From contig NZ_PDJQ01000001.1 in assembly GCF_002563855.1 (NCBI RefSeq), forward strand, positions 620,001-684,000: a stretch of 64,000 nucleotides of DNA, given 5' to 3'. The notes under the pieces were generated by a model. The model made no database searches and was not told the origin of the DNA. It was given only the letters and a program-made list of their open reading frames with translations. This document shows, in pieces, positions 3,270 to 59,545 of the stretch (the stretch's first letter is position 1; each line of letters opens with the position of its first letter). The position numbers and the translations under genes were made by a program. This DNA comes from Tepidiforma thermophila (GTDB lineage: Bacteria; Chloroflexota; Dehalococcoidia; Tepidiformales; Tepidiformaceae).

Positions 3270-4400
3270 TCAATCCCGCGCCACCTGCGGGATGCGGATG
3301 GGCGCCGGGCGGGGCGGCGGCGTGGGGGTCGGCGTGGCCGCCCGCGTGGGTGTCGCCGGGGGCGTAAAGGTCGGCGGGGTGGTCCGCGTAGGGGTCGGGG
3401 TCGCCGTGGGCGAGGCGGCCCGGGTTGGGGTCCAGGTAGGGGTAGGAGCAGGTGTGTCTCCCGGGAGGATGTAGGTCGTCAGGCTGGCGCCGAGTTCTCG
3501 GGCATAACTTTCGAGCGCATTGACAACTGGGATGGAAAAACGAACTGAACGATTGACGTAGCTATTTCCGCCGGAAACTACACTGACGATGTATGCTGTG
3601 TCTGGTGATACCGCCCAGATTGGACTCCCGCTCTGTCCTTTATAGACGTCTGCCCAGGTGTAAATAAAATCATCATCAAAGAAGAAATCTTCATGATCGA
3701 CGGCAGTCCACCACATCGTCCCAACTGGCTTATCACCAGGATATCCTGCCGTTACTAGACCGACACTATGATCGTTCAAAAATCCGTCTGGAGCATATGC
3801 TATAACGGGGTAAGGTCTCATTATCGTGTCGTCCCAGTCGTAAAGATCGAGCACAAGTATGGCCCAGTCGTAAATTGTTGGAGGCAACAGCGCGTCTGCT
3901 GGGTCTCGTCCTGGGCCATTTGCCCATCCGTTTGGTACGGCCATCCTAATTGAATATCCACTGCCAAATGGCCAATTAAGTCCGTTTGATCCTGGTATCA
4001 CAACGACAGATTTAACGTATCTTCCGGAAAAATAAACGCAATGTGCAGCGGTTAGAACTACGTTGACCGCAACGAGTGTCCCCGAGCAATAGCTGAGGTT
4101 TTCGTTATGATCGAAAATCCCCAATCTTGCCACGGTCCGGAAAATTGGCTGCGTGGTGTCAGTAACCCGGATGCGGTCGTCTGGCGGAAACACCGTCGCC
4201 GCTCCGGCATCGCCCGACTCCGCCATTGCGGCGCGGATCAGCTCCTCGGCGTTCTCAGGAGGCGGCTGAAGCTCAAACTCCACCAGCTCGTATGGGCTCG
4301 CATCTGCCTCGGCCCGGCCGGCCCCGCTCGAGAGAACTATCGCCCCGCCGACGAGCCACAGCCCGGCCAGCAGGAGCCCGAAAACCCGTGTCCAGCGCAT
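3270..4400 (-). CDS. Secreted trypsin-like serine protease with low-GC catalytic core
   Basis: A 376-residue paralogue of the protease at 2131-3165. It has a signal peptide (1-32), a propeptide-like acidic stretch, and a protease domain with His120 (LTAAHC), Asp178 (YDWAILV) and Ser257 (KGQSGSP). A long Pro/Thr linker (about 317-365) and the tail APIRIPQVARD follow. All catalytic residues are present, so it should be active outside the membrane. The DNA for the central domain (about 3480-4140) is strikingly AT-rich compared with both ends: 23 of 60 bases are G/C at 3661-3720, while the linker and signal-peptide ends are over 65 % GC. This suggests that a foreign or recombined catalytic core was fitted between native export and tail modules. 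Confidence 0.9.
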   Translation of the reverse strand: MRWTRVFGLLLAGLWLVGGAIVLSSGAGRAEADASPYELVEFELQPPPENAEELIRAAMAESGDAGAATVFPPDDRIRVTDTTQPIFRTVARLGIFDHNENLSYCSGTLVAVNVVLTAAHCVYFSGRYVKSVVVIPGSNGLNWPFGSGYSIRMAVPNGWANGPGRDPADALLPPTIYDWAILVLDLYDWDDTIMRPYPVIAYAPDGFLNDHSVGLVTAGYPGDKPVGTMWWTAVDHEDFFFDDDFIYTWADVYKGQSGSPIWAVSPDTAYIVSVVSGGNSYVNRSVRFSIPVVNALESYARELGASLTTYILPGDTPAPTPTWTPTRAASPTATPTPTRTTPPTFTPPATPTRAATPTPTPPPRPAPIRIPQVARD

Positions 4401-5935: not shown

Positions 5936-6222
5936 TGCAGCTTGGAGCTTGGAGCCTGGAGCCTGGAGCTTGAGTATACCCAACTCCTCCCTCCTCCCTC
6001 CTCCCCTGGGGCGGGGCGCGGGCGCGGCGGGCGGGGCTCCCTCCTCCCTTTTCCCTGGGCGGGGCGCCGGGGCCGCGGGCGGGGCTCCCTCCTCCCTCCT
6101 CCCTGTGGCGGGGCTGCGGGGCCGCGGGCGGGGCTCCCTCCTCCCTCCTCCCTGTGGCGGGGTGCGTGGGCCGGGCGGGGCTCCCTCCTCCCTCGGGGCG
6201 GGGCTGCGGTGCGGCGGGGGCC
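5936..6222. repeat. G-rich intergenic repeat tract, locus 1
   Basis: About 290 bases with no credible gene. It begins with a simple repeat of CTTGGAG/CCTGGAG units (5940-5973). Four to five units then follow in which TCCCTCCTCCCTCCTCCC alternates with GGGGCGGGGC plus a short GC-rich spacer. Unit length is roughly 45-60 bp. The minus strand carries runs of GGGAGGAGGGAGGAGGG, which could form G-quadruplexes. The tract begins right after the patatin stop codon and lies upstream of clpS. The same units recur at 11575-11772 and 59172-59545. Confidence 0.85.
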
Positions 6223-6227
6223 CCTCC

Positions 6228-7112
6228 CTACGCCGCCAGCCGTGCGCTGCCGCCCGGGTGGGACCTCCCCGCAGGCATCACCCGGCCCCAGGGATCGATC
6301 ACCCGCGTCAGCTCACTCCGCGCCCGCGCAAGCTGCTCCTGGATCAGCCCCTCCGACACATCCAGCCGCCACGGCGACAGCCCGGCAAGGTCCGGCCGCA
6401 CCACCCGGACCGCCGCCGCGGAGTGCGCGATCGCCTCCATCGCATCGGTCGTGGCGTGGGTCAGGATTCTGAACGAGCGGGCGAGCACGCCGATGGCGGT
6501 CCGCGGGGGCGGCGCGGCGCCCGGCGGCGGCGTCAGGTCGATCGCCAGCACCTCGCCCGCGCCCAGCGCCAGCGCGCTGGCAATGTCGACCGACGCGGTG
6601 ATGCAGCCGTCGACGAACAGCTCGCCGCCGATCTCCACCGGCTCGAACACCCCCGGGATGGCGGTCGACGCCGCAATCGCCGGCGCCAGCGGCCCTTCGC
6701 GGAAGAGGTGCTTCTGCCCGCGCGTCAGGTTTGTCGCCACCACCGCGAGCTGGAGCCGCGCATCCTCGAAGCGGAGGTCGCGCACGTGGGCATCGAGCAG
6801 GCCGCGAACGATGTCGTTCTCGCGCAGGGCGCGGGGGCTCCGCGCAATCCGCGCGGCCAGGTGGACCGGGTTCCAGCGCAGCACCCGGATCCGGCCGAGC
6901 CCCCGCCACACCTCGAGCAGCCCCTCCGGGTCGTCCGGGTACATCGCCACCCAGGCGCCGTTCAGCGAGCCGACGCTCGTGCCGACGACGAGGTCGGGCC
7001 GGAAGCCGAGCTCGAACGCGGCCTGGATGTAGGCGGCCTGGACCACGCCGTAGGTCCCGCCCCCGCCGAGGACCAGCGCCCGCAGACCGTTCCGGGGAGC
7101 CTCCGGTGCCAC
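6228..7112 (-). CDS. Patatin-like phospholipase
   Basis: A 294-residue cytoplasmic patatin-fold acyl hydrolase, expected to hydrolyse phospholipids or other acyl esters through a Ser-Asp dyad. It has the oxyanion loop GGGGTYG (16-22), nucleophile Ser46 in GTSVG, and the dyad Asp168 in FVDGC; the usual third residue is Gly or Ala, here Cys170. The start is GTG 7112, with AGGAGG 7 nt upstream. The length is typical for small bacterial patatins. It lies head-to-head with the lipoprotein hydrolase at 7212, so both may share a divergent promoter region. The true substrate is not predictable. Confidence 0.92.
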   Translation of the reverse strand: MAPEAPRNGLRALVLGGGGTYGVVQAAYIQAAFELGFRPDLVVGTSVGSLNGAWVAMYPDDPEGLLEVWRGLGRIRVLRWNPVHLAARIARSPRALRENDIVRGLLDAHVRDLRFEDARLQLAVVATNLTRGQKHLFREGPLAPAIAASTAIPGVFEPVEIGGELFVDGCITASVDIASALALGAGEVLAIDLTPPPGAAPPPRTAIGVLARSFRILTHATTDAMEAIAHSAAAVRVVRPDLAGLSPWRLDVSEGLIQEQLARARSELTRVIDPWGRVMPAGRSHPGGSARLAA

Positions 7113-7211: not shown

Positions 7212-8942
7212 ATGGCCCGACGCCTCCTCCTGTCCGCTGCTGCCGCCTTCGCCGCCCTTGCGCTGGCCTGCTCCGACCGCGCACCCTCGAACGCCGACGC
7301 CGGCACCGCCGGACCCGGCCCTGCCGCGCTCCAGTGGTCGAACTGCGGCGGCCGCGCCGAGTGCACCACCCTCCAGGTCCCGCTCGACTGGGACAAACCG
7401 TCAGGCGAAACGATCGAGATCGCCGTCATCCGCTACCCGGCGCGCAAGCCCGACCAGCGGATCGGCGTGCTGATGGCGAACCCCGGCGGCCCCGGTGGCT
7501 CCGCCATCGACTTCCTCCGCGCCTGGCAGAGCATCCTCGCCCCCGACATCCGCGACCGCTTCGACCTCGTCGCCTTCGACCCGCGCGGCGTCGGCGAAAG
7601 CACCCCCATCCTCTGCCACGACCGCCTCCAGGAGCTCGTCGCCGTCGACCCCGACCCTGACACCGAGGCCGAGTGGCAGGAGGCCGAGCGCGTCGCGAAG
7701 GCGTTCGCTGACGACTGCGCCGCAGCCGCCGGGCGCCTCCTCCCCCACGTCGGCACGAAGGACGTGGCGCGGGATATGGACGCCCTCCGCGCCGCCCTCG
7801 GCGAAGAGCAGCTCACCTACGTCGGCTACTCCTACGGGACGACGCTCGGCGCCGTCTACGCTGACCTCTTCCCCGGGCGCGTCCGCGCCTTTGTGCTCGA
7901 CGGCGGCACCGACCAGTCGCTCGACTACGAAACCCTGGCCGTGACCCAGATGGTCGGCTTCGAACGGGCCCTCCAGGCCTATCTCGACGACTGCGCGGCG
8001 CGGCGCTGCCCCCTCGGGCGCGACGGCAACCCCCGGGCCGCCATCGACCGCGTCATCGCCGCTGCGGAGCAGGCGCCGATCCCCGCGCCCGGCGCCGACC
8101 GCCCGGCCGGCCCCGGCGAAGTCCAGCTCGGCATCATCTCCGCCCTCTACAGCACGTCGTACTGGAATCAGCTCACGCAGGCGCTCGTCCGCGCGCTCGC
8201 CGGCGACGGCACCGGCCTCGTCCAGCTCACCGACCAGTACCTGCTCCGCAACCCCGACGGCTCCTACCCGAACCTGATCGAAGCGAACTACGCCGTTAAC
8301 TCGGTCGATTCGGTCTGCCCGAAAGACCCGCGCGCCTACCGGGCGATGGCCGACCGGTTCGCGAAGATTGCGCCCACCTTCGGCCGGTCGGCGGCCTCGA
8401 GCGGGCTCGTCTGCGCCTACTGGGCGGCCCCGCCCGACCCGCTCGGCGTGCCCCGGGCCGCCGGCTCGGCGCCCATCCTCGTCATCGCCACGACCAACGA
8501 CCCTGCCACGCCCTACGAGTGGGGGAAGGCCCTGAGCGAGCAGCTCGAGAATGCCGTCCTGCTGACCTACCGCGGCAACGGCCACACCATCTACGCCCAG
8601 GGCAACGCCTGCGTCGACGAGGTGGTCAACGCCTACCTGCTGAACCTGGCGCTGCCCGCCGCGGGCACCACCTGCGGCGACGGTCCGCCGCCGCCCGGGC
8701 AGGCCGCCGAACCGGCTGCATCGCCGCCGACAGAGGCCGCGACGCCGTCGCCCGCTGCCCGCCTGGCCACCCCAACGCCGGCCGCCGCCGGCGACCCACC
8801 GGCCGAGAGCGGCCAGTCCGGAGGCGGCGAGCCGGCCACGTGGGGCTACTGGCTGGTCGGCCTGCTCCTGCTGGCGACGGCCATCGCCTTCGTCGGCATC
8901 GGCGTCGCTCAGTCCCGCCGCGCGCGCCCGCCCGGCCCCTAA
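7212..8942 (+). CDS. Secreted alpha/beta hydrolase lipoprotein, TAP-like
   Basis: A 576-residue exported hydrolase of the tripeptidyl-aminopeptidase/proline-iminopeptidase type. The signal peptide ends in a lipobox (LALAC, Cys20). The alpha/beta core has NPGGPGGS (oxyanion loop, 90-97), Ser207 in VGYSYGTT, and the C-terminal TAP-like segment with ...ATTNDPATPYEWG and GNGHT (Asp and His of the triad). A Pro/Thr/Ala-rich linker and a final membrane helix (WGYWLVGLLLLATAIAFVGIGV) precede a basic tail. Having both a lipobox and a C-terminal helix is somewhat unusual. ATG 7212 is chosen at the signal peptide; the frame is open far upstream only because GC-rich DNA lacks stops. The last codons form part of the direct repeat that bounds the low-GC island. 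Confidence 0.9.
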   Translation: MARRLLLSAAAAFAALALACSDRAPSNADAGTAGPGPAALQWSNCGGRAECTTLQVPLDWDKPSGETIEIAVIRYPARKPDQRIGVLMANPGGPGGSAIDFLRAWQSILAPDIRDRFDLVAFDPRGVGESTPILCHDRLQELVAVDPDPDTEAEWQEAERVAKAFADDCAAAAGRLLPHVGTKDVARDMDALRAALGEEQLTYVGYSYGTTLGAVYADLFPGRVRAFVLDGGTDQSLDYETLAVTQMVGFERALQAYLDDCAARRCPLGRDGNPRAAIDRVIAAAEQAPIPAPGADRPAGPGEVQLGIISALYSTSYWNQLTQALVRALAGDGTGLVQLTDQYLLRNPDGSYPNLIEANYAVNSVDSVCPKDPRAYRAMADRFAKIAPTFGRSAASSGLVCAYWAAPPDPLGVPRAAGSAPILVIATTNDPATPYEWGKALSEQLENAVLLTYRGNGHTIYAQGNACVDEVVNAYLLNLALPAAGTTCGDGPPPPGQAAEPAASPPTEAATPSPAARLATPTPAAAGDPPAESGQSGGGEPATWGYWLVGLLLLATAIAFVGIGVAQSRRARPPGP

Positions 8943-9021
8943 CCCCGCCCTCGCGTACACTCCGGTTCACCCCCCACCACGGGACCGGAGGACCCGCGTG
9001 GCCAATGCCGCGCCCGGCGCC
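8889..9021. repeat. Left direct repeat of the HEPN island (about 130 bp)
   Basis: This segment covers the last 17-18 codons of the hydrolase gene, the intergenic TACACT promoter, an ACCGGAGGA ribosome site and the first 8 codons of an MFS gene (GTG GCC AAT GCC ...). It recurs at 10155-10278 with about six substitutions and three small indels by eye. Here the MFS reading frame stops after a few more codons, where the low-GC island begins. Confidence 0.9.
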
Positions 9022-9041
9022 TTTTGGCTGGGCTAAACACC

Positions 9042-9776
9042 TCATCCCGGACTCGGAAAAACGTCTGGCAGGTTTGGGAATTGCTCCAACAGGCGCACAC
9101 GTAGCGAGTTTCTGTGATCATCAACGTGACGATTCGCGCTCTTTGGTTGATTCGCGATCATCCAAAAGAAATGAAGGGAATCGGAAAAGAAGTGATTGAC
9201 CCGTTCTGCAAATAATTCGGCAAAAACAGGACTAACATAGCTTCTGACGTCATCTCTCCAAACAGGATCAGCAAACTCTGCCGATGGATGGACAACCATA
9301 TTGCGCAACCTGAAGAGTGCAGACAGATGAGAATGTAATTGCCCACCCGTTTCCTTTTTCAGATCGAAGGCTAACTCCATAGTCTGAGTTATTTTCTTTG
9401 CCGCAGATTTTCTGTTCTTTTTCCAAGAAGCTTTCACATCTTTTGTCGAACGTATCGAATCGGCAATTACCTTCTGAAAGGACTCCCACGCGATCGCCAA
9501 AGAGACGATTGTCTGAGAGCAAGAGCTCAATTCCGATTCCAACATGCGAGCCCTGTTATCAGCGTCGGATGTATCCCAAACTGCAGCTATTTCGTTGCCA
9601 GCAACTAGTGATTGATCTCTATGTTTGCTTGCAATCCATATCCAAAAAGGCGCGGCTGAATATCGTAGCTTCATCGAAAATTGAGGAATAAAATTGCCAT
9701 CAGGTCTTTCAATAATATGAATATTAACCATTGGCTGGACGCCACGGATAATCAGAAAACCTTTTTCGCCAGTCAT
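9042..9776 (-). CDS. HEPN-like protein of a low-GC island
   Basis: A 244-residue protein not recognised as a named family. The second half is helical and contains LRNMVVHP: Arg158-Asn159-x3-His163, which matches the R-polar-x3-His signature of HEPN ribonucleases and HEPN folds common in toxin-antitoxin and abortive-infection systems. The N-terminal half is beta-rich (IHIIERPDGNFIPQF). No partner gene lies beside it. The DNA is strongly AT-biased (23 of 60 bases G/C at 9361-9420) against roughly 70 % around it, a clear sign of transfer. ATG 9776 is used; ATG 9731 is an alternative start. The HEPN call rests on a short motif and is tentative; that it is a coding gene is well supported by an intact frame in AT-rich DNA. 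Confidence 0.65.
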   Translation of the reverse strand: MTGEKGFLIIRGVQPMVNIHIIERPDGNFIPQFSMKLRYSAAPFWIWIASKHRDQSLVAGNEIAAVWDTSDADNRARMLESELSSCSQTIVSLAIAWESFQKVIADSIRSTKDVKASWKKNRKSAAKKITQTMELAFDLKKETGGQLHSHLSALFRLRNMVVHPSAEFADPVWRDDVRSYVSPVFAELFAERVNHFFSDSLHFFWMIANQPKSANRHVDDHRNSLRVRLLEQFPNLPDVFPSPG

Positions 9777-10154
9777 ACGTTTTTATCTCGATGTATTGCA
9801 GTGCATCGATGTCCATTCATGCGGTGTTCTCTGGACATACCTTTGTCTACTTAGAAACACGCATCATTCAGAAGTGTTCAAAAATTTGGTAGATCGAGTA
9901 CTTTCGTAACGTCTGCCATTATTATTCACGTTATTCGATTTGATCGTGCTTGGCTGCCTGCGAGCGGCGGTGGAGGTTTTTAGCAGATGGTGATGGTCGT
10001 ATAGGCGAGTGAGGCTAAGCGCCTCAGCTAGAGTAGTGCGGGATGGTGCGTTGCTGGTTATGGATTGCTGATCGGCGGGCATGACGCACCGGTGACGGGG
10101 GATTTCGCCCCGATTCTACTCCAAGTCATGGCGCAGGGCGGAAACTGGGGGTTC
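9777..10154. other. Non-coding remainder of the low-GC island
   Basis: About 380 bases upstream of the HEPN-like gene with no convincing reading frame. 9777-9960 is AT-rich and must hold the promoter of the HEPN-like gene. 9960-10150 rises in GC and looks like the end of another element, with a small hairpin (CGGGG-gatttcg-CCCCG near 10096-10112). It could be a remnant of an insertion sequence, but I see no transposase and no matching terminal inverted repeat. Confidence 0.5.
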
Positions 10155-10278
10155 TTCATCGGCATCGCCCAGTCCCGCCGCGCGCGCGCCCGGCCCCTAA
10201 CCCTGCCGTCGCGTACACTCCGGTTCACCCCCACCACGGGACCGGAGGACCCGCGTGGCCGATGCCGCGCCCGGCGCC
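10155..10278. repeat. Right direct repeat of the HEPN island (about 124 bp)
   Basis: Second copy of 8889-9021. It includes a truncated hydrolase tail (IGIAQSRR then stop), the TACACT promoter, ACCGGAGGA and the GTG start of the MFS gene. A 27-bp piece of it (GTGGCCGATGCC...) occurs again at 10330-10356, 75 bp further on and in frame. Confidence 0.9.
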
Positions 10279-11543
10279 CTCGGAGGCCCGCGGACCCGCC
10301 CGGCCCGCTTCTTCTACGGCTGGTGGATCGTGGCCGATGCCGCGCCCGGCGCCCTCCAGGCCGCCCTCCTCGGCCAGGCCTACGGCGCCTGCGTCGTCCT
10401 CCTCCGTGAGCAGTTCGGCTGGAGCACGACGATGCTCTCCGCCGCCTCCAGCCTCCGCGAGGCCGAAAGCGGCATCCTCGGCCACTCCACGGCGCCCTGC
10501 TCGACCGGTTCGGGCCGCGAAAGGTCGCCTCGGCCGGCGTCGTCATCCTCGGTCTCGGCTTCATGCTCTTCAGCCGCGTGCAGGAGCCCTGGCAGTTCTA
10601 CGCCGCCTTCCTCGTCATCGCCGTCGGCGCGAGCATGTCGGGCTTCCTCACGGCCACCTTCGCCGCCGTCCACTGGTTCGAACGCCGCCGCGCCACAGCC
10701 ATCTCGCTCACCTCGGCCGGCTTCGCTATCGGCGGCATGTGCGTGCCGCTCACCGTCCTTGCCCTCGAAAGCCTCGGCGGGCGCACCACGGCGCTCCTCT
10801 CCGGGGTCCTCATCATCGCGGCCGGGCTGCCGCTTGCCCGGCTCTACCGGCACCACCCCCATGAGCTCGGCCTCGAACCCGACGGCGGCCCGCCGGCAGC
10901 CGCGCGGCGCGCCACGGGCGGCCTCGGCGCGCGCCGGCGCACCGCGACTTCACCCTCGGCGAGGTCGTCCGCACCCCGGCCTTCTGGCTGATCTCGCTCG
11001 GCCACGCCTCGGCCCTGTTCGTCGTCGTCGCGATGAGCGTGCACCTCGTCTCCCACCTGCGCGACAGCCAGGGCTAGACGCTCGGCCAGGCCTCCGCCGT
11101 TGTGCTGGCGCTCACCTTCACGTTCATGGTCGGCAACCTCACGGGCGGGTTCCTCGGCGACCGGGTGAACAAGCGCGCCCTGCTGGTGGCCTGCATGGCG
11201 ATGCACTGCACCGGGCTGCTCATCCTTTCGCATGCCGCCAACCCGTGGATGGTCGCCGCCTTCGTGGTCATCCACGGCCTCGCGTGGGGGTGGCGCGGCC
11301 CCCAAGATGACCGCCATCCGGGCCGACTACTTCGGCCGGGCCGCCTTCGGCACGATCATGGGCGTCTCGAACCTGGTCATCCTGAGCGGCACGATCCTCG
11401 GCCCGCTCATCGCCGGCGTCGCCTACGACCGCACCGGCAACTACCGCCTCGGCTTCGATATCCTCGCCTTCATCGCCCTCGCCGGCTCCGTCTTCTTCCT
11501 CCTCGCCAGCCGCCCATCCCCGCCGCCCTCCCGCCGCCCCTAG
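10255..11543 (+). pseudogene. Decayed MFS transporter gene
   Basis: An MFS permease of about 400 residues can be pieced together only across several frames. From GTG 10255 one reads FFYGWWIV and FGWSTTMLSAASSLREAE. The frame is then lost near 10490 and resumes with FMLFSRVQEPWQFYAAF (from 10563). It is lost again near 10940 and resumes with DFTLGEVVRTPAFWLISLGHASALF. It meets an in-frame TAG at 11075-11077, and shifts once more near 11300 before GPKMTAIRADYFGRAAFG...LLASRP and the stop at 11543. Three frameshifts and one nonsense codon make a working product very unlikely. The surrounding genes are intact, so general sequencing error is a poor explanation. The gene lies just downstream of the HEPN island. 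Confidence 0.85.
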
Positions 11544-11574
11544 CCGCCGCTCCCCGCTCCCCGTTCCCCGCTCC

Positions 11575-11772
11575 AAGCTCCAAGCTCCAACCTCCTCCCC
11601 GGGGCGGGGCAGGGCTGCGGCGGGGCTCCCTCCTCCCTCCTCCCTGGGGCGGGGCGCGGGCCGGGGCGGGGCTCCCTCCTCCCTCCTCCCTGGGCGGGGC
11701 GGGGCCGGGGTGGCGGGGCTCCCTCCTCCCTCGGCGGGGCGCGGACCGGGGCGGCGGGGCTCCCTCCTCCCT
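11575..11772. repeat. G-rich intergenic repeat tract, locus 2
   Basis: A short run of AAGCTCC units (11573-11594), the reverse complement of the CTTGGAG units of locus 1, is followed by about four units of TCCCTCCTCCCTCCTCCCTG alternating with GGGGCGGGGC. The tract fills the gap between the convergent MFS pseudogene and fucosidase and abuts the fucosidase stop codon directly. Confidence 0.85.
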
Positions 11773-11773
11773 C

Positions 11774-13012
11774 CTACCCCCACTCCACCGCCAGCACCGT
11801 CGCCAGCGGGTCCAGCTCCTCCTCAGGAACCTCGATCGTCAGCTCGCCCGGCGGGTCGCGCCCGAGCAGCCGGTCCACGATGGCGCAGCGGCCGGAGGTC
11901 GCCAGTTCGCGGCCTGTGGCCACGATCCACGCCCGGCGCACGTGGTCGATCGGCACGCCCCGCACCGTCACGCGGTCGTACGGCCGCATCAGGAGGTGGA
12001 GGTACGTCACGTTCCGCCGCTTCGTCGCCGGGCCGTAGAACTGCCACGGCTCCAGCCCCGGTTCGGTGCCGATGATCGCCTCGCCGTGGCGGGCCATCCA
12101 GCCGGCCACCTCCTCGAGGATGGCGGTCTGCTCCGGCGGCAGCGTCCCGTCGCCCCGGGGGCTCACGTTCAGCAGCAGGTTCCCGCCGCGCCCGGCCACC
12201 TCGCAGAGCGTGTGCACCACCTGCCGCGGCGATTTGTAGCGGGTATCGGCCGGCACGTACCCCCAGCTCTCGTTCAGCGTCATGCAGGTCTCCCAGCGCT
12301 CCCCGGGCGGCTGCGGCGGCACGAACTGCTCCGGCGTCGCGAAGTCGCCGGCCCCGGGCAGCCGGTCGTTGACCAGGATGCCGGGCTGCAGCCGCCGGAT
12401 GAGCGCCTCCAGCTCCTTCGCCCGCCACTGTTCCGGCGTGCGCTCCCAGCCGCCGTCGAACCAGAGCAGGTCGATCGGCCCGTAGTTCGTCAGCAGCTCG
12501 CGCACCTGTTCGAACATGTCGGCGAGGAACCGCTCCCAGCCCTCGGGCGTCGGCTGGCGGCCGCGCCCGAACCGGTACGGCCGGTCATCGTCGGTGAGCG
12601 CCGGGTAGCCGGGGTGGTGCCAGTCGCAGAGCGAGAAGTAGAGCCCGACGCGCAGCCCCTCGGCGCGGAACGCCTCCACGTACTCCCGGACGAGGTCGGC
12701 CCCGGCGGGCGAATGGGCCACGCCGAAATCGCTCGTCTTCGTGTGGAACATGGCGTAGCCGTCATGGTGCTTCGCGGTGAAGACTGCGTACTGCATCCCG
12801 CAGCGCTTCGCGAGGCGGGCGAGCGCCGGGAAGTCGCGGTTCCGCGGGTCGAACGTGGCCGCCGAGGCCTGGTACGCCGCGACCGTCATCGCGCCCGTGG
12901 GGAGGGCGACGTTGCCGCCGGCCATCGGCCACGACAGTTCGACTCCCTGCTGGGACGCGTGCCCCCAGTGGATGAACATGCCGAAGCGGGCGGCCGCGAA
13001 CCAGTCTGTCAT
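11774..13012 (-). CDS. Alpha-L-fucosidase, GH29
   Basis: A 412-residue glycoside hydrolase family 29 enzyme that removes alpha-L-fucose by retaining hydrolysis. It has the N-terminal RFGMFIHWGHAS motif, YAVFTAKHHDGYAMF (residues 75-89), the nucleophile Asp186 in DLLWFDGGW, and GGNLLLNVSPRGDG typical of the family. A short beta-rich domain ends the protein. ATG 13012 gives the family N-terminus; there is no signal peptide, so it appears cytoplasmic and would act on imported oligosaccharides. It stands alone, with a 35-bp gap to the upstream tmk stop and a repeat tract directly after its own stop. Confidence 0.95.
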   Translation of the reverse strand: MTDWFAAARFGMFIHWGHASQQGVELSWPMAGGNVALPTGAMTVAAYQASAATFDPRNRDFPALARLAKRCGMQYAVFTAKHHDGYAMFHTKTSDFGVAHSPAGADLVREYVEAFRAEGLRVGLYFSLCDWHHPGYPALTDDDRPYRFGRGRQPTPEGWERFLADMFEQVRELLTNYGPIDLLWFDGGWERTPEQWRAKELEALIRRLQPGILVNDRLPGAGDFATPEQFVPPQPPGERWETCMTLNESWGYVPADTRYKSPRQVVHTLCEVAGRGGNLLLNVSPRGDGTLPPEQTAILEEVAGWMARHGEAIIGTEPGLEPWQFYGPATKRRNVTYLHLLMRPYDRVTVRGVPIDHVRRAWIVATGRELATSGRCAIVDRLLGRDPPGELTIEVPEEELDPLATVLAVEWG

Positions 13013-37776: not shown

Positions 37777-39120
37777 ATGACCATCACCCACGAGGCGCTG
37801 CGCGAGGCCTTCCGCGCCCGCGGCCGCCAGCTCTGGCTCGTCGGCGGCGCCCTCCGCGACCGCCTCCTCGGCATCCCGTCGAAGGATATCGACTACGCCA
37901 CCGACGCCCTCCCCGACGAAATCGAGGAGATCGCCCGCTCCCTCGGCGCGAAGGTGAGCACCGTCGGCAAGCGGTTCGGCACCATCGGCGTCCTCGTCGA
38001 GGACACGTGGGTCGAAATCACCACCTTCCGCGGCGACAGCTACGCCGGCGGCAGCCGCTGGCCCGAGGTCACCTTCGGCCGCACCATCGAAGAGGACCTC
38101 GCCCGGCGCGACTTCACCATTACCGCCTTCGCCGAAAACGCCCACACCGGCGAGTGGCTCGACCTCTTCGGCGGCGAGGCCGACCTCCGCGCAGGCATCA
38201 TCCGCGCCGTCGGCGACCCGGCCACCCGCTTCCGCGAAGACCCCCTCCGCATCCTGCGCGGCGTCCGCTTCGTCAGCCAGCTCGGCTTCCGGCTCGACCC
38301 GGCCACTGCCGCCGGGATGCGCGAAACCGCCCACCTCATCGCCACCCTCTCGCAGGAGCGCGTTACCGCCGAGCTCGACAAGCTCCTGCAGGGGCGGGCC
38401 CCGGCGGCCGGCCTCGAGGCCCTCCGCGAGGTCGGCGCTCTTCCCCACGCCCTCCCCGAGCTGGCCGCCATGCCCGGCTGCGAGCAGAACCGCTTCCACA
38501 GGTTCGATGTCTGGGGCCACACGCTCGCGACCGTCGAGGCGATCGCCGCCACGCCGGAGACGCTCCGCCTGCGCCGCTGGGCAGCGCTCCTCCACGACAT
38601 CGGCAAGCCTGCCGTCCGCCACCGGAAGCCGAACGGCGAATGGGGCTTTTACCGCCACGAGGTCGTCGGCGCCGAGCTCGCCGCTGCCCTCCTCGAGCGG
38701 CTTCGCCTCGGCCGGGCGGAAAGCCACGTCGTCGTCCTCCTCGTCCGCCGCCACATGGACCGCCCCGACCCGGCCGACCGCCGCGCCGTCCGCCGCTTCA
38801 TGGCGAAGCTCGGCGGCCACTGGCGCGACCTCCTCGCGCTCAAGCGCGCCGACAACGCCAGCCACACCTACGACGACACCGCCTACCACGACGCCCTCGA
38901 GGCGGCCTGCCTCCGCGCCGAGCAGGAGGAGGCCGAAGCAATCCGCGCCGAAAGCCCGCTCTCCGGCGACGAGCTGGTCCGGATGTTCGACCGCCCCCCG
39001 GGGCCGTGGGTCGGGGTGATCAAGCGGCAGCTCGGCGCCATGGTGCTCGACGGCGAACTCGCTCCCGGCGATAAGGAGGCCGCCGCCCGCATCGCCCGCC
39101 GCCTCATGGGCCGCGATTGA
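37777..39120 (+). CDS. cca: CCA tRNA nucleotidyltransferase (class II poly(A)-polymerase family)
   Basis: A 447-residue enzyme that builds or repairs the 3' CCA of tRNAs. The nucleotidyltransferase head has LVGGALRDRLLG (21-32), metal-binding Asp37/Asp39 in KDIDYAT, EEDLARRDFTITAFA, and the RNA-binding RFREDPLRILRGVRF. An HD phosphohydrolase-like domain follows (LLHDIGKPAVRH, FYRHEVVGAELA). No signal is visible that separates full CCA addition from A- or CC-adding subtypes. Its last seven codons are part of the 57-bp direct repeat that brackets hicBA. Confidence 0.92.
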   Translation: MTITHEALREAFRARGRQLWLVGGALRDRLLGIPSKDIDYATDALPDEIEEIARSLGAKVSTVGKRFGTIGVLVEDTWVEITTFRGDSYAGGSRWPEVTFGRTIEEDLARRDFTITAFAENAHTGEWLDLFGGEADLRAGIIRAVGDPATRFREDPLRILRGVRFVSQLGFRLDPATAAGMRETAHLIATLSQERVTAELDKLLQGRAPAAGLEALREVGALPHALPELAAMPGCEQNRFHRFDVWGHTLATVEAIAATPETLRLRRWAALLHDIGKPAVRHRKPNGEWGFYRHEVVGAELAAALLERLRLGRAESHVVVLLVRRHMDRPDPADRRAVRRFMAKLGGHWRDLLALKRADNASHTYDDTAYHDALEAACLRAEQEEAEAIRAESPLSGDELVRMFDRPPGPWVGVIKRQLGAMVLDGELAPGDKEAAARIARRLMGRD

Positions 39121-39154
39121 CCATCCCCGGCCGCCCGCGCCTGTGGTAGCCTGC
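39098..39154. repeat. Left 57-bp direct repeat of the hicBA cassette
   Basis: It spans the last seven codons and stop of cca, the intergenic region and the TAGCCT promoter that drives hicB. An identical copy lies at 39690-39746. I compared the two base by base and found no mismatch over 57 bp; both flanking bases differ. Confidence 0.97.
39147..39152 (+). promoter_or_regulatory. Extended -10 box (TGG-TAGCCT) of hicB, inside the repeat
   Basis: TAGCCT is preceded by TGG and ends 6 nt before the hicB ATG 39159. It is the left copy of the duplicated promoter. Confidence 0.6.
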
Positions 39155-39158
39155 GGCC

Positions 39159-39461
39159 ATGGCCGCCCGGTACACCGGAGTCCTCGCCCGCGACGCCGAG
39201 GGGTGGTACACCGCTACCTGCCCGGCGATGCCCGGCGCCGTCGCCGAGGCCGCGAGCCGCGACGAGGCCATCGATGGACTGCTACGCGCGCTCGCGGCAT
39301 GGCTCGATGCGGCCGCCCGCCGCGGGGAGCGCCCGCGCGATGAGACGCCCGAACTTGTGGCCGATGCGGTTGCCGGAGCGCTCCGCGACCTTGCCGCGGA
39401 AGGCGCCCCGCTGGTGGTCGAAACCATCGCACTCAGCCTGCCCGCGGCGCAGGTTGCGTGA
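39159..39461 (+). CDS. hicB: HicB-like antitoxin
   Basis: A 100-residue protein of the HicB antitoxin family, which has a partial RNase H-like fold. It opens with YTGVLARDAEGWYTATCPAMPGAVAEAASRDEAIDGLLRALAAWL, the typical 'D.E.GY...PdlPG..t.G.t.eEA..n...al' layout. The C-terminal part (LVVETIALSL) has no obvious ribbon-helix-helix, so autoregulation is uncertain. It would bind and block HicA. It is leaderless from the duplicated promoter and overlaps hicA by 4 bp. The order hicB-hicA is reversed from the classical one. Confidence 0.85.
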   Translation: MAARYTGVLARDAEGWYTATCPAMPGAVAEAASRDEAIDGLLRALAAWLDAAARRGERPRDETPELVADAVAGALRDLAAEGAPLVVETIALSLPAAQVA

Positions 39462-39688
39462 GCCGCCTGGCCGGGTTCTCCGCGCGCGAGGTCGGCCGGG
39501 TTGCCGAGCGGCTCGGCTGGCAGCTCGAACGGCAATCCGGGTCGCACCTGGTGTACGTTCCGCCCTCGCAGGGGCTCCCCATCCTCGTTGTGCCCAACCA
39601 CCGCGAACTGCGTCCCGGCACGGTCCGTGCCCTGATCCGCGCCATGGGAATCGACGTCGACACCTTCCTGCAGATCGCCGGGCGGTGA
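39458..39688 (+). CDS. hicA: HicA-like mRNA interferase toxin
   Basis: A 76-residue HicA toxin with a dsRBD-like fold. It has SAREVGRVAERLGWQLERQSGSHLVYV with the catalytic His30, then PILVVPNHRELRPGTVRALIRAMGIDVDTFLQI, an almost complete family consensus. HicA cleaves mRNA and tmRNA unless bound by HicB. It starts within the hicB stop (GTGA). It ends 1 bp before the right repeat copy, which places the toxin gene exactly at the cassette border. Confidence 0.92.
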   Translation: MSRLAGFSAREVGRVAERLGWQLERQSGSHLVYVPPSQGLPILVVPNHRELRPGTVRALIRAMGIDVDTFLQIAGR

Positions 39689-39689
39689 A

Positions 39690-39746
39690 GCCGCCTCATG
39701 GGCCGCGATTGACCATCCCCGGCCGCCCGCGCCTGTGGTAGCCTGC
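39690..39746. repeat. Right 57-bp direct repeat of the hicBA cassette
   Basis: Perfect copy of 39098-39154. Here the cca 3' end is an untranslated relic, while the promoter part serves the amine oxidase gene at 39755. Confidence 0.97.
39739..39744 (+). promoter_or_regulatory. Extended -10 box (TGG-TAGCCT) of the amine oxidase, inside the right repeat
   Basis: Right copy of the duplicated promoter; it ends 10 nt before ATG 39755. Confidence 0.55.
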
Positions 39747-59171: not shown

Positions 59172-59545
59172 AAGGGAGGAGGGAGCCCCTCCCCTCCATA
59201 CCTCCCCCCAGGGAAGAGGGATGAGATGCTCTCCCTCCTCCCTCCTCCCTCCTCCCTCGGGGCGGGGCCGGAGCGGCCGCGGGGCTTCCCCTCCCTCCTC
59301 CCTCCTCCCTGGGGTGGAGGGGCGGCCGGGCGGGGCTCCCTCCTCCCTTCTCCCTTCTCCCTCCTCCCTCCTCCCTGGGGCGGTGCCGGTGCGGCCGCGG
59401 GGCTCCCTCCTCCCTCCTCCCTCCTCCCTCCTCCCTCGGGGCGGGGCCGGTGCGGACGCAGGGCTCCCTCCTCCCTCCTCCCTCGGGGCGGGGCCGGGAC
59501 GGACGCGGGGCTCCCTCCTCCCTCCTCCCTCGGCGGGGCGGCCGG
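59172..59545. repeat. G-rich intergenic repeat tract, locus 3
   Basis: The largest of three such tracts, about 370 bases. It opens with AGGGAGGAGGGAGCCCC, then carries roughly eight units of TCCCTCCTCCCTCCTCCC alternating with GGGGCGGGGC plus a short variable spacer (GGAGCGGCCGCGG, GGTGCGGACGCAG and similar). Because both orientations occur at its start, a hairpin with the first TCCC unit is possible. There is no coding capacity beyond low-complexity frames. Confidence 0.85.

What the first reader, a model, noticed from the sequence alone, without database searches (positions are those of the whole stretch)
8889..10278. Low-GC island with one HEPN-like gene between approximately 130-bp imperfect repeats
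The island between the repeats (9022-10154) drops to about 38 % G+C in places (23 of 60 at 9361-9420) in DNA of roughly 70 %. The repeats differ at about six bases and three small indels, so this insertion is older than hicBA. The left copy retains the true end of the hydrolase gene and an aborted start of the MFS gene; the right copy retains the MFS start.
Basis: seen in the sequence. Interest (0 to 1): 0.7.

Follow-up and report, generated by a model that had tools for sequence, protein, structure and literature searches.

The report
Foreign toxin-like gene in duplicated target
A probably heat-loving Chloroflexota bacterium picked up a short stretch of foreign, AT-rich DNA with one probable RNA-cutting (HEPN) gene, and the landing site was copied as a ~125-base repeat on each side; this is a known but unexplained way for genes to enter bacterial chromosomes, seen here several times in one genus.

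Summary
The repeats are 8897-9021 (125 nt) and 10157-10278 (122 nt), with 5 substitutions and 2 indels. They enclose 1,135 bp at 47% G+C in a 71% G+C window. The closest congener (G004, about 91% nt) and two more (G003, G002) have the empty site with a single copy. A fourth (G001) has a different, 2.6-kb response-regulator/histidine-kinase insert at the same spot, again with a duplication (39 bp) of the hydrolase end. Both window copies share bases that no congener has, so the duplication arose in this lineage. The one gene (9042-9776, minus) is intact: a divergent DUF3644-like HEPN protein whose AWExxxK and RNxxxH align with the family, but below Pfam's cut-off and without relatives in about 500 Chloroflexota genomes. 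The downstream MFS gene is a pseudogene only in this lineage. In 503 kb compared with G004, 4 of 13 sharp insertions carry such long duplications (HEPN, hicBA, an MFS gene, an orphan); no transposase explains them. This matches 'insertion with long target duplication', described for Helicobacter pylori restriction genes; the mechanism is unsolved. New member of a known kind, unusually well polarised.

The parts
7212..8942 (+). Alpha/beta hydrolase (TAP-like) gene upstream of the insertion, intact
   Evidence: Pfam Abhydrolase_4 E=1e-28, Abhydrolase_1 E=8e-27; start position; 93% aa identical in G004
8897..9021 (+). Left copy of the target duplication (125 nt): end of hydrolase, 55-bp intergenic stretch, first 24 nt of the MFS gene
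   Evidence: alignment with the right copy; single copy in G004, G003, G002
8998..9036 (+). Aborted start of the MFS gene (12 codons, then TAA)
   Evidence: sequence
9022..10156 (.). Inserted DNA, 1,135 bp, 47% G+C, absent from all congeners searched
9042..9776 (-). 244-aa divergent DUF3644-like HEPN protein, E98-x3-K102 and R158-N-x3-H163; orphan
   Evidence: no relative
10157..10278 (+). Right copy of the target duplication (122 nt), carries the true MFS start
10255..11546 (+). MFS transporter pseudogene (1-nt deletion near 10483, 1-nt deletion near 10920, TAG near 11075, 1-nt insertion near 11303); intact in G004, G003, G002 and G001
10329..10356 (+). 28-bp copy of 10254-10281 that replaced the ancestral sequence inside the MFS gene
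   Evidence: 100% identical; absent from G004 and G001
39098..39154 (+). Left copy of the 57-bp repeat flanking hicBA: second, younger event of the same kind in this window
39155..39689 (+). Inserted hicB-like and hicA genes, absent at the syntenic site of G004
   Evidence: HicA Pfam E=3e-15, HicB-like E=0.006 below cut-off
39690..39746 (+). Right copy of the 57-bp repeat flanking hicBA

Best explanation
[quoted passage not shown] A 1.1-kb piece of foreign AT-rich DNA carrying one HEPN gene entered the short gap between a hydrolase gene and an MFS gene. The process duplicated about 124 bp of the target, so both neighbours kept complete ends. Shown: the empty site, the single ancestral copy, the in-lineage origin of the duplication, the absence of detectable terminal repeats or a transposase, and further events of the same type in the same genome and at the same spot in a congener. 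Inferred: that the DNA came in by uptake (ComEC and DprA genes are present) and was joined by RecA-assisted illegitimate recombination or repair synthesis that re-copied the target, not by a transposase. Also inferred: that the cargo was kept because the HEPN RNase acts in defence or as a toxin, and that cutting the MFS gene off from the hydrolase operon allowed it to decay.
For: Single-copy empty site in three congeners. Both copies share lineage-specific bases (CAGT and CTCCGGTTCA where G004 has CAGG and CTCCCCATCA), so the duplication post-dates the split from G004. Repeat score 207 against a null maximum of 107. Four of 13 sharp G000 insertions in 503 kb have long duplications, scores 115-207. 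A second, different insert with a 39-bp duplication sits at the same spot in G001. No long terminal inverted repeats; no IS1634-family transposase in the genus. ComEC and DprA are present in all six genomes. HEPN: P0001 scores 8.6 bits against a profile built from 14 Chloroflexota DUF3644 proteins, 0 of 1,545 shuffles reach it, and both motifs align. MFS decay: worst-broken of 217 genes tested, with excess amino-acid changes on the G000 branch against the hydrolase (23:17 versus 12:29, P=0.014).
Against: No donor sequence is known, so the junction mechanism cannot be read. DprA and ComEC occur widely and do not prove transformation. The HEPN match stays below Pfam's cut-off (16.4 against 27.6 bits), and a coiled-coil family gave a better E-value. 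The AlphaFold model was useless (mean pLDDT 44). The HEPN gene could be decaying slowly: its chance of surviving intact by drift is 0.001 with repeat-based rates but 0.10 with MFS-based rates. The MFS lesions could predate the insertion.
Confidence: 0.8

Rival explanations
1. Campbell-type integration: a circle carrying the HEPN gene and one copy of the ~124-bp segment recombined into the single chromosomal copy. The circle would have been excised from another strain where the island already stood between repeats.
For: It gives exactly this anatomy and could explain how such cassettes spread between strains. In a nearby region G000 has the order R-X-R-Y and G001 R-Y-R-X around an 88-92-bp repeat, which suggests recombination through R.
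Against: It only moves the question of the first duplication to another strain. The two copies share bases that no congener has, so the donor would have to be a near-identical strain.
Confidence: 0.13
2. Transposition in trans by an IS1549/IS1634-type transposase, the known source of long, variable target repeats (8-514 bp, PMC2266710). The island would be a passenger or a decayed element.
For: Repeat length lies in the reported range.
Against: No IS1634-family transposase in any of six genus genomes; no matched long terminal inverted repeats; the cargoes of the sister events differ.
Confidence: 0.04
3. Ancestral arrangement, with other genomes losing the island by recombination between the repeats.
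For: Direct repeats do allow precise deletion.
Against: It needs several independent losses (G004, G003, G002). Shared lineage-specific bases in both copies date the duplication after the split from G004. The AT-rich cargo is foreign in composition and was found nowhere else in the family.
Confidence: 0.01
4. Assembly or sequencing artefact.
For: The adjacent gene is frameshifted.
Against: Single-contig genome; only 7 of 217 genes (3%) are disrupted in G000 relative to G004, against 12 of 213 the other way; the two repeat copies differ from each other; the hydrolase and HEPN frames are intact.
Confidence: 0.02

Closest known systems
Insertion with long target duplication (Nobusato et al. 2000, H. 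pylori restriction-modification genes; cited in PMC1643837, PMC3874152, PMC3031569)
   Same: Gene cargo inserted between direct repeats of variable length on the order of 100 bp; one copy at the empty site of a relative; no mobile element of its own apparent
   Different: The cargo here is a lone HEPN gene, not a restriction-modification system; sister events carry hicBA, an MFS gene, an orphan and a two-component system; host is a high-GC Chloroflexota; the same gap was hit twice in the genus
IS1549/IS1634 family insertions (PMC2266710)
   Same: Long, variable-length direct repeats
   Different: No transposase, no long terminal repeats, and no such transposase in the genus
Homology-facilitated illegitimate recombination in competent bacteria (PMC3240628)
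   Same: Foreign DNA joined without a transposase; a plausible route
   Different: Homology at one end could not be demonstrated here, as the donor is unknown
DUF3644 / EC042_2821-type HEPN RNases (PMC3710099)
   Same: AWExxxK in the second helix and RN-x3-H spaced as in DUF3644 proteins
   Different: Below Pfam cut-off; no fused domain recognised; not in a restriction-modification operon

Membership tests
Insertion with long target duplication | Direct repeats of variable length, on the order of 100 bp, flanking a gene insert | tested here: met
   125/122 nt, 5 substitutions and 2 indels
Insertion with long target duplication | One copy of the repeat at the empty site in a close relative | tested here: met
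   G004, G003, G002
Insertion with long target duplication | No transposase or classical element ends | tested here: met
   the only ORF of note is P0001
Insertion with long target duplication | Cargo is a restriction-modification system (the original examples; a property of the first cases, not taken here as part of the definition) | tested here: not met
   HEPN-like gene
HEPN / DUF3644 | R[N/D/H]x3H motif and conserved acidic Ex3[K/R] in the second helix | tested here: met
   R158-N-x3-H163 and E98-x3-K102, aligned with 14 Chloroflexota DUF3644 proteins
HEPN / DUF3644 | Score over the family's curated cut-off | tested here: not met
   16.4 bits against 27.6; hence called DUF3644-like, not filed as a member
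HEPN / DUF3644 | All-helical HEPN fold | tested here: inconclusive
   single-sequence AlphaFold model, mean pLDDT 44
HEPN / DUF3644 | RNase activity | not testable with these tools
   needs the bench
MNT-HEPN toxin-antitoxin pair | Adjacent nucleotidyltransferase antitoxin | tested here: not met
   no second recognisable gene in the island
IS1634/IS1549 transposition | IS1634-family transposase in the genome | tested here: not met
   NF033559: 0 of 6 genus genomes

The most novel reading that the evidence does not exclude
In this genus, short gene cassettes (toxin-like genes, antitoxin pairs, transporters, regulators) often enter chromosomes by a transposase-free process that duplicates 40-125 bp of the target, repeatedly using the same intergenic gaps. 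It would be a general gene-gain route and not one special to restriction-modification genes.
Probability: 0.35. Interest if true: 0.6.

Novelty: new member of a known kind. Interest (0 to 1): 0.42.

Why it matters
How single genes without transposases enter compact bacterial chromosomes is poorly understood. Insertion with long target duplication was named in 2000 from H. pylori restriction genes, and its mechanism is open. This genus offers several polarised events of different ages (repeats 100% to 96% identical), a spot hit twice with different cargo, and a visible cost to a neighbour gene. That makes the mechanism and its rate testable by comparing strains, and suggests it is not restricted to restriction-modification genes.

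Tried and rejected
Wider homologue searches for the HEPN protein failed: PDB, plasmids and phages, viral contigs, GTDB contigs twice, 99 relatives and 400 Chloroflexota genomes, PADLOC, NCBIfam, PHROGs. AlphaFold from a single sequence was unusable, so no fold search was run. Rfam found no convincing RNA in the island (one snoRNA match far below its gathering score), and no tandem repeats were found that would point to an RNA antitoxin. A gene-disruption census with unfiltered long ORFs was swamped by wrong-frame ORFs and was redone with codon-position G+C filters. BLAST-overlap duplications of 3-33 bp in other insertions mostly failed the null test and are not counted. A paper with likely further examples (PMC2853133) is not held.

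Full report
What is there. The window lies at 620001-684000 of a single-contig 2.74-Mb genome. The contig is unnamed and its taxonomy was not given; its relatives are handled here as congeners G001-G005. From its gene content and G+C I take it to be a Tepidiforma-like Chloroflexota, which is inference. Between an intact alpha/beta hydrolase gene (7212-8942) and an MFS transporter gene lies a stretch of 1,135 bp at 47% G+C in a 71% G+C window. It is bounded by direct repeats 8897-9021 and 10157-10278 with 5 substitutions, one 2-nt and one 1-nt indel. A random-pair control of the same geometry reached 107 at most in 1,500 draws against 207 here.

It is an insertion. The closest congener, G004, aligns with the window up to 9021 on the left and from 10157 on the right, and the two alignments overlap by 124 bp in G004, which has one copy of the unit and nothing between. 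G003 and G002 are empty as well. The inserted DNA is in none of the congeners. Both window copies share bases that G004 and the others lack, for example CAGT for CAGG and CTCCGG for CTCCCC, while each copy also has private changes. So the duplication happened in this lineage after it separated from G004, and both copies then drifted. Synonymous divergence from G004 is about 0.25, i.e. about 0.125 per lineage, and the copies differ by about 0.04, i.e. about 0.02 each. This puts the event somewhere between one sixth and one half of the way back to that split, depending on whether synonymous or overall divergence is the yardstick.

The same gap was used twice. In G001 a different insert of about 2.6 kb, a response regulator, a histidine kinase and a small protein, sits at the same place; relative to G003 the hydrolase end is again duplicated, 39 bp with one mismatch. 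Its random-pair probability is weaker (7 of 1,500, because of low-complexity arrays), but the empty G003 site supports it. The response regulator has no close counterpart elsewhere in the genus (best 43%).

It is not alone in this genome. A 503-kb collinear stretch of G000 compared with G004 holds 13 sharp G000 insertions of at least 300 bp. Four have long duplications with scores of 115-207: this one (124 bp), hicBA (61), an MFS transporter gene at 926882-928686 (64 bp at 97%), and a 259-aa orphan gene at 534116-535086 (92 bp at 99%). The other insertions have no duplication clearly beyond chance, so the process is one of several. Not all four are equally clean: at 534 kb G001 carries related cargo next to an 88-bp repeat in a different order (R-Y-R-X against R-X-R-Y), which points to recombination through the repeat. 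For the 926-kb event no outgroup was at hand, so its direction is assumed.

The gene. P0001 (9042-9776, minus) has codon-position G+C of 50/41/43%, unlike the host. Pfam gives DUF3644, a HEPN family according to PMC3710099, at E=0.007 but below cut-off, and an irrelevant coiled-coil family at E=0.0015. I therefore collected 14 DUF3644 proteins from Chloroflexota genomes and built a profile. P0001 scores 8.6 bits with AWExxxK and RNxxxH on the conserved columns; none of 1,545 shuffles reaches it, and the single control ORF that equals 8.6 bits is presumed to be P0001 itself, whose region was in the control set. These are the two elements that PMC3710099 names as the RNase site. So HEPN membership is likely but not secure. 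The AlphaFold model was too poor to help. No antitoxin partner is recognisable. The frame is intact; under neutral drift that has probability 0.001 with repeat-based rates and 0.10 with MFS-based rates, so selection to keep it is suggested, not shown.

Consequence for the neighbour. The MFS gene is intact in G004, G003, G002 and G001 but carries three 1-nt frameshifts, a TAG and a 28-bp internal copy of its own start in this genome. Only 7 of 217 genes are disrupted in G000 and this is the worst, so sequencing error is unlikely. On the G000 branch it shows 23 amino-acid to 17 silent changes against 12 to 29 in the hydrolase (P=0.014); against its own G004 branch the excess is not significant (P=0.27). 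The hydrolase stop and the MFS start are 55 bp apart in the left copy, so a shared transcript in the ancestor is plausible and its interruption is the simplest reason for decay; this is inference.

Mechanism. The anatomy equals 'insertion with long target duplication', reported from H. pylori strain comparison for restriction-modification genes (Nobusato et al. 2000, as cited in PMC1643837, PMC3874152 and PMC3031569). The original paper was not held and was not read. A transposase source is disfavoured: the only family known to me for such long repeats, IS1634/IS1549 (8-514 bp, PMC2266710), is absent from the genus, and no matched ends were found. All six genomes encode ComEC and DprA, so uptake of DNA with repair-type or illegitimate joining is plausible (homology-facilitated illegitimate recombination is described in competent species, PMC3240628). 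Why duplications cover gene ends may simply be survivorship: an insertion into a 55-bp gap leaves both neighbours whole only if it falls cleanly inside the gap or the ends are duplicated. That is inference.

Verdict. The class is known; the cargo, host and repeated use of one gap are new details.

Noticed in passing
window 10329-10356: 28 bp identical to the MFS start (10254-10281) replaced the ancestral sequence 75 bp downstream inside the MFS pseudogene; looks like a small templated copy event.
   Followed up: partly
window 6009-6243, 11598-11779, 59231-59540: GC-rich 41-49-bp tandem units (GGGCGGGGC..GGGGCTCCCTCCTCCCT) occur as arrays at three places in the window and also in G004; unexplained minisatellite-like family.
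   Followed up: no
window 3411-4239: Second low-GC stretch (53%): looks like part of a trypsin-like protease gene, apparently an AT-richer paralogue of the gene around 2500-2990 (62 bp at 73%, 37 bp at 81%). The protease call is from reading the sequence only.
   Followed up: no
L018 (genome 534025-535172 of G000) and L125 (genome 1184940-1186133 of G001): An 88-92-bp repeat R lies next to two small genes X and Y in the order R-X-R-Y in G000 and R-Y-R-X in G001, with copies nearly identical within each genome but about 75% between them: concerted evolution or repeated recombination through R.
   Followed up: partly
L088-L089 (genome 926843-928755 of G000): An MFS transporter gene inserted between 64-bp repeats (97%) that contain a strong hairpin (GATGCCCGCC..GGCGGGCATC).
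   Followed up: partly
genome 784044-816980 of G000: 33-kb island absent at this site from G004 and from G001, with about 21 bp duplicated at its edges; not annotated here.
   Followed up: no
window 9788-9809: TCGATG-N10-CATCGA palindrome just upstream of the HEPN gene start, a possible operator; significance not tested.
   Followed up: no
G001:C1:1292000-1292446 and G003:C3:240368-240811: A partial DprA-domain protein lies just upstream of the hydrolase gene in G001 and G003; no such second match in G000 or G004, so the whole neighbourhood seems variable.
   Followed up: no
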